Source: Kineosporia sp. A_224 (GTDB lineage Bacteria > Actinomycetota > Actinomycetes > Actinomycetales > Kineosporiaceae). Taken from it: 50,235 nt of DNA. The stretch is from the NCBI RefSeq assembly GCF_002198655.1, contig NZ_MWLN01000104.1, positions 1 through 50,235 on the forward strand, given 5' to 3'. The stretch's first letter is position 1, and each line of letters begins with the position of its first letter. This document shows, one piece after another, positions 40,765 through 44,654 of the stretch. The notes beneath the pieces are model-generated. The model was not told the origin of the DNA. It did no database searches and saw only the letters and a program-made list of their open reading frames with translations. A program made the position numbers and the translations under genes.

Positions 40765-41319
40765 TCATCGCACCGCGAGCAGCACCCGCAAACTTGTCCG
40801 GGCGTGGTTGATGCGCGACTTCACGGTGCCCAGCGGGACGTCGAGCCGCTCGGCGATCTCGGCGTAGTCCAGGCCCATGAGGTCGCGCAGGACGACCGCT
40901 TCGACGACGTGCGGCTGGTCGACGCGGAGCTTCTCGAGCGCCTCGACGAGGTCGAGCCGGGTGCCGGCGAGCACGCTGACCCGCTCCGGGTCGGCGACCT
41001 CGGGGGCCTGGTCGAGGCCGGCCTCGTCGGCCGTCTTCCGCATCCGCCGGTAGGTCGCGAAGGCGCTGTTCGCGACGACCGGGTACAGCCACGTCGTGAA
41101 CTTGCTCCGGCCGCCGAAACCGTGGATGCCCTTCGCGACCGCGATGAGGGCCTCCTGGGCGGCGTCCTCGGCGTCCGAGCTGAACGGCAGGATCCGGGTG
41201 CAGCGGCGCAGGACGTCCGGCCGGATCGCCGTGAGCAGTGCGTCGAGGGCGTCGGCGTCGCCGGTGGCGGCCCGGGCGGCGAGGGCGTCGAGGTCGGTGC
41301 TGGGTGAGGTCACGTTCAC
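40765..41319 (-). CDS. ECF-type RNA polymerase sigma factor
   Basis: 184 residues. Region 2 spans about residues 20-90 (DAEDAAQEALIAVAKGIHGF and KFTTWLYPVVANSAFATYRR, the -10 recognition helix area), and region 4 about 125-180 (VEAVVLRDLMGLDYAEIAER, then LDVPLGTVKSRINHARTSL, the helix-turn-helix for -35 binding). No extra C-terminal domain and no anti-sigma gene adjacent. GTG at 41319 as start; the divergent kinase gene may be part of its control circuit. Confidence 0.9.
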   Translation of the reverse strand: MNVTSPSTDLDALAARAATGDADALDALLTAIRPDVLRRCTRILPFSSDAEDAAQEALIAVAKGIHGFGGRSKFTTWLYPVVANSAFATYRRMRKTADEAGLDQAPEVADPERVSVLAGTRLDLVEALEKLRVDQPHVVEAVVLRDLMGLDYAEIAERLDVPLGTVKSRINHARTSLRVLLAVR

Positions 41320-41340
41320 ATGATCTCAAACCGGGACGAC

Positions 41341-41350
41341 GTGACGTCAC
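41341..41350. promoter_or_regulatory. 10-bp palindrome between sigma-factor and kinase genes
   Basis: GTGACGTCAC is a perfect palindrome centred between the divergent starts (41319 and 41377). Its position fits an operator controlling both genes, but no protein can be assigned to it. Confidence 0.4.
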
Positions 41351-41376
41351 CATCCATGATCGGGCAGGATGCGCCC

Positions 41377-42915
41377 GTGGCCCCACCCACGACCGTCGGT
41401 CGCTTCCGCGTGCAGCGGTCGCTGGGGTCGGGCGGCTTCGCGACGGTCTGGCTCGCCGAGGACCCGCAGCTCGACTCGCTCGTCGCGGTGAAGATCCTCG
41501 CCGACAACTGGGCCGCCAACGCCGACGTGCACCGCCGCTTCGTCGACGAGGCGAGGCTGCTGCGCCGGGTCGACAGCGACCACCTCGTGCGCGTCTACGA
41601 CATCGGCGAGCTCGACGAAGGCCGCCCGTACTTCGTCATGTCGTACGCGGACGGCGGGACCCTCGCCGACCTCGTCAAGGACCGCCCGCCGCCGTGGCAG
41701 CCGGACGACGTCCTCGCGGTCGTCGACGGGATCTCGGCCGCGCTGACCGTGCTCCACCGCAGCGGGATCGTCCACCGCGACGTCAAGCCGGCCAACGTGC
41801 TCTTCCGGACGGCGGTCCACGCCGACCGGGCGACCGGCCCGCTCGCCGGCAAGCGGGTCATGCTCGGGGACCTCGGCATCGCCAAGGACCTGCAGTGGGC
41901 CTCCGGGCTCACCCTGCCCGCCGGGTCCCCCGCGTTCATGGCTCCCGAGCAGCGCGACATGGCAGGCCGGATCACCCCGGCGACCGACGTCCACGCGTTC
42001 GCGATGACGGTCGGCCGGCTGCTCGGGATCGCCGCCCCGTGGCCGGAGACCGCGCTCGGGGACGTGCTGCGCCGGGCCACCGCCGAGCGTGCCGAGGACC
42101 GGACGGCGACCGCCGCCGAGCTCGCGGCCGAGCTGCGCGGCGGGCTCGCGCCCTGGCGGCGCGGTGCCGGGCCGATGCCGACGAGCGAGGTCGCCGCGGC
42201 GCTCACGGTGCCGATCCCGATCGGGACCGGGCTGCGGGTGCCCGACCCGCCGGCACCCGTCTCGCCGGCACCTGCCTCGGAGGTGTCCGTCCTGCAGGTG
42301 CCCGCCGCACCGGTGCCGTCCCTGGCGCCCGCGGAGCCCCTCGACCTGTCACCGCCGGTGACCCCGCCCCCGGGCCCCGCGCCGTCGTCCGCGCCGGCGC
42401 GCGGGCCGCGCCGGGACCGGCGGCGGCTGCTCACCGGGGCCGCCGTCCTCGCGGTCCTGGTCCTCGGGGCGGTGCTCACGAGCCGGTACCTCCTCACGAC
42501 CCACCGGCTCGCCCCGACCGACGGCGGCGCCTCGGTGGCGATCCCGCGGTCGTGGGACACCGAGAAGGTCGCCGGGGTGAGCTTTCCCGGCGCGGACGAC
42601 CCCGACTCCGGGGCCCGTGCCGGCGCCGGGGCGCGAGCGGTCACCGTCGCCTACTCCGACACGTACACCGACCCCGCCCAGGTGCTGCGGAGCATCGAGG
42701 TCTCCGGCTGCGCGACGACGACGGCCAGCAAGGGCACCGTCGGCAAGTGGCCCGCGACGCTGTGGCGCCGCACGGGCTGCGCCGACGCCGCCGTCGTCCA
42801 GGACGTCGTCCTCGCCAACCAGGGCACCGACGAGTTCACGGTGTGGGTGCAGGTGCGGTCGGTGGACGGCGACCCCGACCTCGAAGAGGTCCTCGGTTCG
42901 CTGCGCGTCGACTGA
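41377..42915 (+). CDS. Transmembrane Ser/Thr protein kinase
   Basis: 512 residues. Kinase domain about residues 7-260: glycine loop LGSGGFATVWLAED, VAVKIL with the ATP Lys, catalytic loop VHRDVKPANVLF, the DFG position as GDLGIAKDL, and SPAFMAPEQ. A Pro-rich juxtamembrane linker (about 275-355) leads to one membrane helix (LLTGAAVLAVLVLGAVLTS) and an extracellular region of about 135 residues with two Cys (SGCATTT and RTGCADAAV), not PASTA-like. The GTG at 41377 is chosen because GCAGGA lies seven bases upstream; in-frame ATGs at 41320 and 41356 lack ribosome sites and the first would abut the divergent sigma gene. It likely senses an envelope signal. Confidence 0.88.
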   Translation: MAPPTTVGRFRVQRSLGSGGFATVWLAEDPQLDSLVAVKILADNWAANADVHRRFVDEARLLRRVDSDHLVRVYDIGELDEGRPYFVMSYADGGTLADLVKDRPPPWQPDDVLAVVDGISAALTVLHRSGIVHRDVKPANVLFRTAVHADRATGPLAGKRVMLGDLGIAKDLQWASGLTLPAGSPAFMAPEQRDMAGRITPATDVHAFAMTVGRLLGIAAPWPETALGDVLRRATAERAEDRTATAAELAAELRGGLAPWRRGAGPMPTSEVAAALTVPIPIGTGLRVPDPPAPVSPAPASEVSVLQVPAAPVPSLAPAEPLDLSPPVTPPPGPAPSSAPARGPRRDRRRLLTGAAVLAVLVLGAVLTSRYLLTTHRLAPTDGGASVAIPRSWDTEKVAGVSFPGADDPDSGARAGAGARAVTVAYSDTYTDPAQVLRSIEVSGCATTTASKGTVGKWPATLWRRTGCADAAVVQDVVLANQGTDEFTVWVQVRSVDGDPDLEEVLGSLRVD

Positions 42916-43005
42916 CTCGGAAAGAAGTCCCGGAACCCGTGAACTTCTCCGCGGGCGGCCCGCTCTCACTGAGCACGAACGGCCACCGCCCCCTTGGAGA
43001 CCACG

Positions 43006-43323
43006 ATGAACCAGTACTCCGGCGCCCAGTACCCGGGCCCGCACCAGCCGCCCGTGTTCGTTGCCCAGCCCACGACGTACGGCGTCGGGCCCGCGACGCA
43101 CCCGTCGCGCAGCACCGCCACCGCCGCCCTGTGGTGCTCGATCCTCGGGTTCTTCTGCTTCCCGATCGTCGGGAGCATCCTCGGCGTCGTGCTCGGCCGG
43201 ATCGCCCGCCGGAACGGCTACCCGGGCGCCCGCGCCACCGCCGGCTACGTCCTCGGCTGGATCGGCCTCGTCCTCGGTGTCGTCGGCCTCGCGTACCAGG
43301 GCCTCGCCGCGGTCTTCGGCTGA
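43006..43323 (+). CDS. Small DUF4190-like two-helix membrane protein
   Basis: 105 residues. A Tyr/Pro/Gln-rich N-terminal tail (about 1-38) is followed by two hydrophobic segments, AALWCSILGFFCFPIVGSIL and GYVLGWIGLVLGVVGL, around a basic loop RIARRNGYPGARATA, the usual DUF4190 layout. Function unknown. ATG with GGAG six bases upstream. It lies between the kinase and the OmpA-like lipoprotein, so it may belong to the same envelope unit. Confidence 0.75.
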   Translation: MNQYSGAQYPGPHQPPVFVAQPTTYGVGPATHPSRSTATAALWCSILGFFCFPIVGSILGVVLGRIARRNGYPGARATAGYVLGWIGLVLGVVGLAYQGLAAVFG

Positions 43324-43394: not shown

Positions 43395-44654
43395 ATGACC
43401 TCGCGCCCGCTGCCCCGCTCCCGCGCCACCCGTGCCACCGCGCTGGCGGCCACCGCCGGTCTCGCCCTCGCACTCACCGCGTGCGGGGCGAGCGAGACGT
43501 TCACCCCGGCGGGCGGCACCTCGTCCGCGCCTGCTGCCGGTGTCACCGTGGGCGTCGACGAGACCGGCGGCGTGACGATCGACGGCGGGACGACCGACGG
43601 CGGGACGACGGCGACCGACGGCGCCGGAGGGGACGCCGTCACGCTGCCCGAGTTCCCGACCCCGCGGGTGCCCGACCTCACGTCGATGACGGGCAAGGCC
43701 GCCACGGTGCAGAAGGCGATCGTCAAGGACGTCGACCTCCCGCCGGGGGTCGAGGTGACCGGGGCCCGCTGCGCGGCCGACGGCTCGATCGTCAACCGCT
43801 CGGGCGTCACCGTGGGCGGCGGGGACGACGGCAGCCAGGTCGTCAGCCGCGCCGGGGTCAGCCAGGTCGGCGCGGACGGCAGCGGCCAGGTGTCGTCCGG
43901 TGACGCCGTCTACCAGGTCGACGCCGACGGCTCCGGGCAGGTCACCACCACGGCCGGGGTGCTGCAGGTCGACACCGACGGCAGCGGCCAGTTCACCTTC
44001 GGCGGCACCGTGTACCAGGTCGACGCCGACGGGTCGGGCCAGTACTCGAACGAGACCGAGGTCTACCAGGTGGACACCGACGGCTCCGGCACCTGGACGA
44101 CCGACGACTACGGCGTCATCTCCAACGAGGGCGACGGCAGCGGCCAGTGGACCGGCCCCGAGGGCGTCGTCATCGTCAACGGCGACGGCACCGGCACGCT
44201 CAACGGCCTGCCGATCAGCGTCGCCCCGATGCCGAAGTTCGCGCTGCTCGGCAAGCTGCCCAAGCTCAACAAGCTCAAGCCGCTCGGCAAGCCCTGCGGC
44301 ACGCTCATCCGGATCTCGGCCGGCGTGCTCTTCGACTTCGACAAGGACGCGGTGCGGCCCGAGGCGAAGGAGGTGCTCACCGCTGTCGCCAAGGCCCTCG
44401 GCAAGCAGACGGTCGACATCCAGGTCAACGGCCACACCGACGCCAAGGGCAGCGACACCTACAACCAGGACCTCTCCGAGCGGCGCGCGAACGCCGTCGT
44501 GACGTTCCTCGAGGACGCCGGCCTGAAGGCGCCGCTCGAGGCGCAGGGCTTCGGCGAGACCCAGCCGGTCGCGCCGAACACCCTGAAGGGCAAGGACAAC
44601 CCGGTCGGCCGCCAGCTGAACCGGCGCGTCGAGATCGTCATCCCGAACTCCTGA
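43395..44654 (+). CDS. OmpA-family peptidoglycan-binding lipoprotein with DGSG repeats
   Basis: 419 residues. Lipoprotein signal with lipobox LALTAC near residue 28-33, then a Thr/Gly-rich linker and a Val/Pro region. Seven ~17-residue repeats (about 153-271), most containing VDADGSGQ or VDTDGSGQ, follow. The C-terminal OmpA-like domain (about 310-419) has VLFDFDKDAVRPEAKEVL, NGHTDAKGSDTYNQDLSERR and QGFGETQPVAPN, including the conserved Asp and Arg that bind peptidoglycan. It would tether the membrane surface to the wall through the repeat stalk. ATG preceded by AAGGA at seven bases. It ends before a strong terminator. Confidence 0.9.
   Translation: MTSRPLPRSRATRATALAATAGLALALTACGASETFTPAGGTSSAPAAGVTVGVDETGGVTIDGGTTDGGTTATDGAGGDAVTLPEFPTPRVPDLTSMTGKAATVQKAIVKDVDLPPGVEVTGARCAADGSIVNRSGVTVGGGDDGSQVVSRAGVSQVGADGSGQVSSGDAVYQVDADGSGQVTTTAGVLQVDTDGSGQFTFGGTVYQVDADGSGQYSNETEVYQVDTDGSGTWTTDDYGVISNEGDGSGQWTGPEGVVIVNGDGTGTLNGLPISVAPMPKFALLGKLPKLNKLKPLGKPCGTLIRISAGVLFDFDKDAVRPEAKEVLTAVAKALGKQTVDIQVNGHTDAKGSDTYNQDLSERRANAVVTFLEDAGLKAPLEAQGFGETQPVAPNTLKGKDNPVGRQLNRRVEIVIPNS
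43851..44208 (+). repeat. Seven tandem 51-bp units encoding DGSG repeats
   Basis: Five units of exactly 51 bases from 43851 are followed by units of 54 and 48 bases. Peptide consensus is about xxVYQVDADGSGQxxxx. The DxDGSG core looks like half of a calcium-binding loop, comparable in position to thrombospondin-3 or similar linkers in other OmpA-type proteins; calcium binding is an inference. Confidence 0.85.

What the first reader, a model, noticed from the sequence alone, without database searches (positions are those of the whole stretch)
43851..44208. 17-residue DGSG repeats linking lipid anchor to OmpA-like domain
Seven near-regular units with DADGSG/DTDGSG cores form a predicted stalk. 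Calcium-type linkers before OmpA-like domains are known in Gram-negative outer-membrane proteins, but this is a lipoprotein of a presumed Gram-positive organism and the repeat differs from thrombospondin-3. The 51-bp periodicity could allow length variation.
Basis: partly seen in the sequence, partly recalled or inferred. Interest (0 to 1): 0.5.

Follow-up and report, generated by a model that had tools for sequence, protein, structure and literature searches.

The report
Hairpin-repeat arm in wall-binding lipoprotein
A soil actinobacterium makes a lipid-anchored protein that probably grips the cell wall, and its 17-residue repeats, first read as calcium linkers, look instead like a row of small protein hairpins of nearly constant size in its closer relatives.

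Summary
The repeats are real. Gene 43395-44654 (+) encodes a 419-residue lipoprotein (lipobox LTAC) with eight ~17-residue units, the first degenerate, and a C-terminal OmpA-like domain (PF00691, E 1.5e-18). Host: genus of Kineosporia sp. R_H_3.

Calcium reading not supported. The D-x-D start of an EF-type loop holds in 5 of 7 window units, but in 6 of 84 units of 12 other actinobacterial relatives and 0 of 14 Fusobacterium units. A Gly-rich turn persists. AlphaFold2 gives one beta-hairpin per unit (repeat-only model, mean pLDDT 85), nearest to free-standing beta-meanders: CPAP G-box (Z 13.2), MORN, OspA.

Strain-level length variation not supported: in 18 of 18 aligned proteins the repeat block is 140-156 residues, and the closest ortholog differs in length only by a 15-bp spacer repeat. 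A diverged relative (L042) has about five units.

"Linker" may be wrong topology: the strand before the repeats seems modelled in the OmpA-like sheet, and two cysteines flanking the block occur together (15 of 18) or not at all (3 of 18). I favour a disulphide-closed insertion; a sequence test gave no support, and L042 lacks that pairing.

The parts
43395..44654 (+). whole gene, 419-aa OmpA-family lipoprotein with hairpin repeats
43395..43484 (+). signal peptide with lipobox LTAC (residues 27-30); Cys30 codon 43482-43484
   Evidence: sequence; lipobox-like motif before the conserved segment in 16 of 16 actinobacterial rows, window included
43485..43640 (+). variable low-complexity spacer (52 aa; 38-65 aa in 16 actinobacterial rows); holds a 15-bp tandem repeat 43562-43609 (DGGTT)
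   Evidence: one DGGTT unit fewer in ortholog L023
43641..43730 (+). conserved proline-rich segment (LPEFPTPRVPDL) and helix
   Evidence: model residues 1-20 mean pLDDT 78-81, 21-30 mean 55, helix 17-30
43749..43772 (+). strand VEVTGARC, apparently modelled in the sheet of the OmpA-like domain; ends at Cys126 (43770-43772)
   Evidence: pLDDT only about 50-60
43809..44231 (+). eight 17-residue beta-hairpin units (cores at 43821, 43869, 43920, 43971, 44022, 44073, 44127, 44178)
44223..44294 (+). return segment APMPKFALLGKLPKLNKLKPLGKP (24 aa) between repeats and OmpA-like domain
   Evidence: model residues 201-210 mean pLDDT 92, 211-220 mean 63
44295..44651 (+). OmpA-like peptidoglycan-binding domain; starts with Cys301; expected ligand residues F313 D314 D349 N357 R364
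   Evidence: PF00691 at residues 312-399; residues by comparison with PorE (passage), same in 18 of 18 rows

Best explanation
A lipoprotein held in the outer face of the cytoplasmic membrane whose OmpA-like domain holds the stem peptide of peptidoglycan. The eight repeats fold into a free-standing single-layer antiparallel beta-meander, one hairpin per unit, with the DGSG residues as turns. This meander (14-16 strands, about 7 nm by the usual strand spacing) is inserted between an N-terminal strand and the rest of the OmpA-like domain, the base closed by a Cys126-Cys301 disulphide, so it sticks out as an arm of nearly fixed size. Flexible reach to the wall comes from the low-complexity spacer after the lipid, not from the repeats. 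The arm most likely serves as a binding surface or spacer at the wall. Shown directly: gene, lipobox motif, repeats, conservation. Inferred: peptidoglycan binding, from conserved residues. Predicted: meander fold and insertion. Guess: what the arm binds.
For: OmpA-like domain E 1.5e-18 and the residue set F, D, D, N, R in 18 of 18 rows, as in the PorE complex (passage). Lipobox-like motif in 16 of 16 actinobacterial rows. Repeat-only model: mean pLDDT 85, 16 strands; whole model: 14 strands in the repeat region. Fold matches of the repeat-only model: CPAP G-box 4ld3_A Z 13.2 (rmsd 5.6, 137 aligned), MORN1 6t69 Z 11.1 (6.1, 144), OspA mutant 6kk9_D Z 10.8 (3.5, 130). CPAP hairpin turns are often PDG (passage), comparable to the DG turns here. 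Insertion: 37 of the 50 PDB entries listed align from model residue 28-40 to 337-340, and 24 of 50 align 122 or more residues, more than the 121 of residues 220-340, so some residues before the repeats are counted with the domain after them. Cysteines: 15 of 18 rows have exactly two in the aligned region, at the two ends of the insert; 3 of 18 have none; no row has one. Size: repeat block 140-156 residues in 18 of 18.
Against: No coordinates were available, so the Cys-Cys distance and the arm's length were not measured. Model pLDDT is 50-60 around the N-terminal strand and 31-67 over the first repeat or two, pTM 0.54. 13 of the 50 entries align only from residue 219-225 on. Joining the strand to the domain gave no gain over shuffled strands against NCBIfam (YiaD profile: 105.7 v 105.1, 111.0 v 109.8, 100.8 v 101.1, 131.7 v 131.5 bits). 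The diverged relative L042 has about five units, a cysteine inside a unit instead of before the repeats, and a third in the OmpA-like domain (by eye), so neither size nor cysteine pair is universal. The rows without cysteines may stand for only two events. Two ends of a 7-nm sheet tied to one point need the 24-residue return segment almost fully extended. The cysteine pairing could be intermolecular.
Confidence: 0.47

Rival explanations
1. Linear stalk: the repeats are a rigid spacer in series between lipid anchor and OmpA-like domain, setting the membrane-to-wall distance.
For: Order along the chain; nearly constant size in 18 of 18 rows suits a ruler; confident beta structure.
Against: The cysteine pair flanking the repeats and the N-terminal strand apparently modelled in the OmpA-like sheet would bring both ends together; a variable spacer of 38-65 residues in series would spoil a ruler; L042 has fewer units.
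Confidence: 0.3
2. Calcium-loaded linker: each DxDGSG loop binds Ca2+ and stiffens the stalk.
For: Window units 3-6 read DADGSG or DTDGSG; a weak EF-hand_5 row (E 0.00021, 21 bits, cut-off 25.9).
Against: D/E at loop position 1 with D at 3, units 2-8: 5 of 7 in the window, 15 of 28 in four Kineosporia-like rows (window included), 6 of 84 in 12 other actinobacterial rows, 0 of 14 in two Fusobacterium rows. Position 12 acidic in 3 of 8 units in the window and 15% of 96 units in the 12 others (this count includes unit 1, which is out of register in the others). EF-hand_5 in 2 of 16 rows, EF-hand_1 in 3 of 16, at E up to 1.
Confidence: 0.1
3. Surface adhesin or phase-variable protein whose repeat number changes between strains.
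For: 51-bp periodicity visible in DNA; about five units in the diverged relative L042.
Against: Same units in the closest ortholog (340 residues each from residue 80 on, 330 identical) and a constant block in 18 of 18 rows; DNA copies diverged; the one length difference to the closest ortholog is in the spacer.
Confidence: 0.05

Closest known systems
OmpA-like peptidoglycan-binding lipoproteins (Pal, YfiB, YiaD; PF00691)
   Same: Lipid anchor, OmpA-like domain with the conserved ligand residues.
   Different: Scores lie below the curated cut-off for all 25 NCBIfam families shown (of 41; e.g. YiaD 100.5 v 175); extra repeat domain; expected in the cytoplasmic rather than the outer membrane (inference from the host).
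Mycobacterium tuberculosis Rv0899 (ArfA/OmpATb)
   Same: Actinobacterial membrane-anchored protein with an OmpA-like C-terminal domain (passages).
   Different: Its central domain is a BON alpha/beta domain (passages); no hairpin repeats described there.
CPAP/SAS-4 TCP10 (G-box) domain
   Same: Free-standing antiparallel meander of hairpins with Gly-rich turns (passages; Z 13.2).
   Different: Eukaryotic centriole protein; no Tcp10 row among the Pfam families listed.
MORN repeats and Borrelia OspA central sheet
   Same: Hairpin repeats in an extended sheet (MORN: passages; fold matches; OspA sheet recalled).
   Different: MORN unit is 23 residues beginning GxG; no MORN row.

Membership tests
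OmpA family (PF00691) | score above Pfam gathering cut-off | tested here: met
   67.3 bits v 27.2; a PF00691 row in 18 of 18 members
OmpA family (PF00691) | peptidoglycan ligand residues as in PorE (F, D, D, N, R) | tested here: met
   18 of 18 rows FDDNR; mapped to PorE by spacing only (passage): D-N-R spacing 8 and 15 equal, the first D 35 rather than 34 residues before the second
OmpA family (PF00691) | binds peptidoglycan | not testable with these tools
   needs a pull-down
bacterial lipoprotein | signal peptide with lipobox | tested here: met
   LTAC at residues 27-30; 16 of 16 actinobacterial rows (motif search only, no signal-peptide program)
EF-hand / DxDxDG calcium loops | acidic ligands at positions 1 and 3 kept in relatives | tested here: not met
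   6 of 84 units in 12 relatives, 0 of 14 in two Fusobacterium rows
EF-hand / DxDxDG calcium loops | Pfam EF-hand score above cut-off | tested here: not met
   EF-hand_5 21 v 25.9 bits, 15 v 25.9
thrombospondin type 3 repeat | Pfam TSP_3 match | tested here: inconclusive
   no row at E<=0.1 or E<=1; filters can drop weak matches
MORN repeat | 23-residue unit starting GxG | tested here: not met
   unit is 17 residues; definition from passages
free-standing beta-meander (CPAP G-box type) | single-layer hairpin sheet | tested here: inconclusive
   predicted only: Z 13.2, rmsd 5.6; no Foldseek match at E<=0.001

The most novel reading that the evidence does not exclude
A bacterial free-standing beta-meander of the CPAP G-box kind, grown out of the first hairpin of an OmpA-like domain and closed by a disulphide, forms a 7-nm arm at the wall that captures proline-rich or other partners; it is shared by actinobacterial lipoproteins and by Fusobacterium proteins that carry an N-terminal hydrophobic anchor instead.
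Probability: 0.28. Interest if true: 0.6.

Novelty: new variant of a known kind. Interest (0 to 1): 0.4.

Why it matters
It shows a recurring domain design (OmpA-like wall binder plus a set of hairpins) for whose repeats no Pfam model reached its cut-off in the window protein. It is found in patches of one actinobacterial order (17 of 297 genomes drawn, window's own included) and in two Fusobacterium records. The CPAP authors in 2013 called a solely free-standing meander unique, to their knowledge, among natural proteins (passage); a bacterial example at the wall would be a simple test case for what such sheets do.

Tried and rejected
Calcium loops and length variation: see rivals. Beta-solenoid: considered from the 17-residue period, set aside because the best fold matches are antiparallel meanders; not measured, since I had no coordinates. 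BamB propellers fill many rows of the Foldseek list, at rmsd about 15-18 A.

Sequence proof for the N-terminal strand: four proteins with the insert left out against four with the strand letters shuffled, scanned with NCBIfam. No gain: inconclusive to negative.

Conserved neighbours: 16 neighbourhoods plus a part of the window compared by BLAST (only the best 60 rows looked at, and of these only those of six loci printed). A response regulator and histidine kinase pair recurred in 5 of 16; Pfam names were checked in three of the five. Not at the window.

Viral structure library: nothing at E<=0.001. Phage records: no match to the repeat domain. Solved-structure profile search with the repeat alignment: best E 0.0056, a mitochondrial ribosomal protein, then EF-hand proteins at E above 1; taken as chance.

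Literature: the rows listed by searches (13 of 13; 20 of 43; 15 of 136; 10 of 157; 10 of 10) held no title or abstract start about this protein or repeat. Only listings were seen, except passages of PMC7192894, PMC3776556, PMC7725318 and PMC6151718. That is no proof of absence.

Full report
What is there. The gene runs from 43395 to 44654 on the + strand and encodes 419 residues. The closest named relative found is Kineosporia sp. R_H_3 (L001, 95% identity in the best segment); its contig length of 29,394 equals that of G001 contig C267, and the two encode the same protein, so the window is from the same genus (G001 is labelled same genus). The N-terminus is a signal peptide ending in LTAC, so Cys30 should carry lipid. 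A low-complexity spacer follows, then a conserved proline-rich segment, the repeats, and an OmpA-like domain (PF00691, residues 312-399, 67.3 bits against a cut-off of 27.2).

The repeats. Eight units of about 17 residues start at the positions given in the observation check. Self-similarity at lag 17 is 52, against a shuffle mean of 13.3 and a maximum of 26 in 10,000 shuffles. Only four of eight units have the exact DADGSG/DTDGSG core.

Relatives. In 297 genomes of the order, 25 had a match at E<=1e-20 with the whole protein; several of these match only the OmpA-like part. With a profile of the repeat region, 17 of 297 had a match at E<=1e-6, and in a draw of 396 genomes of the phylum only the window's own genome did. 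A second copy sits in the same genome (61% identity, C118). Two Fusobacterium records match over 80% of the query at 33% identity with the same order of parts; their N-terminus is a hydrophobic stretch without a lipobox (by eye). I aligned 18 proteins (A1: the window, 15 actinobacterial, 2 Fusobacterium; some, such as L069 and L071, are close kin). Left out: L001, identical to L023; L002/L070/L098, one protein of a Brevibacterium assembly cut by a contig end; L042, too diverged (see below); L087, apparently frameshifted; and loci matching only the OmpA-like part.

Size. Units 2-8 line up in all 18 rows, with degenerate cores in a few; unit 1 is degenerate, shifted or absent in many. The block is 140-156 residues in 18 of 18. 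Against the closest ortholog (L023, 414 aa) the window has one more DGGTT unit, in a 15-bp tandem repeat of the spacer, and no length difference from residue 80 on (340 residues each, 330 identical). So the DNA repeat that varies here is not the 51-bp one. Against this: L042, from another genus of the same family (G004), is a 379-residue lipoprotein with a different N-terminal part and about five 17-residue units before its OmpA-like domain (counted by eye); the repeat profile did not find it at E<=1e-6. Over longer times the number does change.

Calcium. Counting units 2-8, D/E at position 1 together with D at position 3 is found in 5 of 7 in the window, 15 of 28 in the four Kineosporia-like rows (window included), 6 of 84 in twelve other actinobacterial rows and 0 of 14 in the two Fusobacterium rows. 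Glycine at position 4 is kept in 28 of 28, 83 of 84 and 12 of 14. The conserved thing is a tight turn. Calcium binding by the Kineosporia-like versions alone is not excluded.

Fold. The repeat-only model has mean pLDDT 85 and 16 strands. Its best structural neighbours are CPAP G-box domains (Z 11.4-13.2), then MORN proteins and OspA. These are extended hairpin sheets; for CPAP and MORN I saw this in passages, for OspA it is recalled. Foldseek alone gave nothing at E<=0.001, so the match rests on the second aligner, whose note warns that repeats reach Z near 13 by common arrangement.

Insertion. With the whole model, 37 of the 50 PDB entries listed align from residue 28-40 to 337-340, over 107-128 residues; the other 13 start at 219-225 and align 104-121. 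24 of 50 align 122 or more, which residues 220-340 alone cannot supply. The table gives only first and last residues, so that the extra ones are the strand 40-47 is my inference. The two cysteines lie at the ends of the insert, both present in 15 of 18 and both absent in 3 of 18 rows (L076 and the two Fusobacterium rows, perhaps two events), with no other cysteine in the aligned part. L042 does not follow this pattern: it has one cysteine inside its third unit, one just before the OmpA-like domain and one in it. A sequence test did not support the strand.

Peptidoglycan. In PorE the stem peptide is held by Arg591, Asp542, Asp576 and Asn584, with Phe541 packing (passage). The same spacing (with one residue more between the two Asp) gives R364, D314, D349, N357 and F313 here, identical in 18 of 18 rows. 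The diaminopimelate type of the Kineosporia wall was searched for (listing only) and not settled.

Role. The conserved proline-rich stretches before and after the repeats, and an aromatic residue at position 8 in 60 of 84 units of the twelve other rows (4 of 7 in the window), recall the way CPAP's sheet binds a proline-rich peptide (passage). The protein may bind its own segments in this way, or a partner's. This is a guess. In G066 a 214-residue lipoprotein without OmpA-like domain carries similar DADGSW units (L132, E 1.1e-7), which suggests that the hairpins can stand alone.

Verdict.

Noticed in passing
L101, L102, L107, L108, L109: A response regulator and a histidine kinase lie next to, and in the same direction as, the OmpA lipoprotein gene in 5 of 16 neighbourhoods (Pfam names checked in L101, L107 and L108).
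   Followed up: partly
L132:1315-1959: 214-aa lipoprotein with similar 17-residue DADGSW units and a proline-rich tail but no OmpA-like domain.
   Followed up: partly
L042:1051-2190: 379-aa lipoprotein of the same family of bacteria with about five 17-residue units before an OmpA-like domain, a different N-terminal part and differently placed cysteines.
   Followed up: partly
L087:590-1971: Distant copy in another actinobacterial family (G660) that seems broken by frameshifts; real decay or assembly error unknown.
   Followed up: no
window 40765-43323: ECF sigma factor (-) divergent from a Ser/Thr kinase (+), then a DUF4190 protein, just upstream of the gene.
   Followed up: no
L063, L064: Fusobacterium versions lack both cysteines and the lipobox; L063 lies beside LemA, GNAT and DUF2207 genes. 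The 2.1-Mb 'plasmid' of F. vincentii looks like a chromosome by its size.
   Followed up: partly
solved structure 7f4v chain aB (no window place): The best sequence match of the OmpA-like domain in the PDB is the C-terminal end of a chain named photosystem I apoprotein A2 (872 residues, E 2.6e-25).
   Followed up: no
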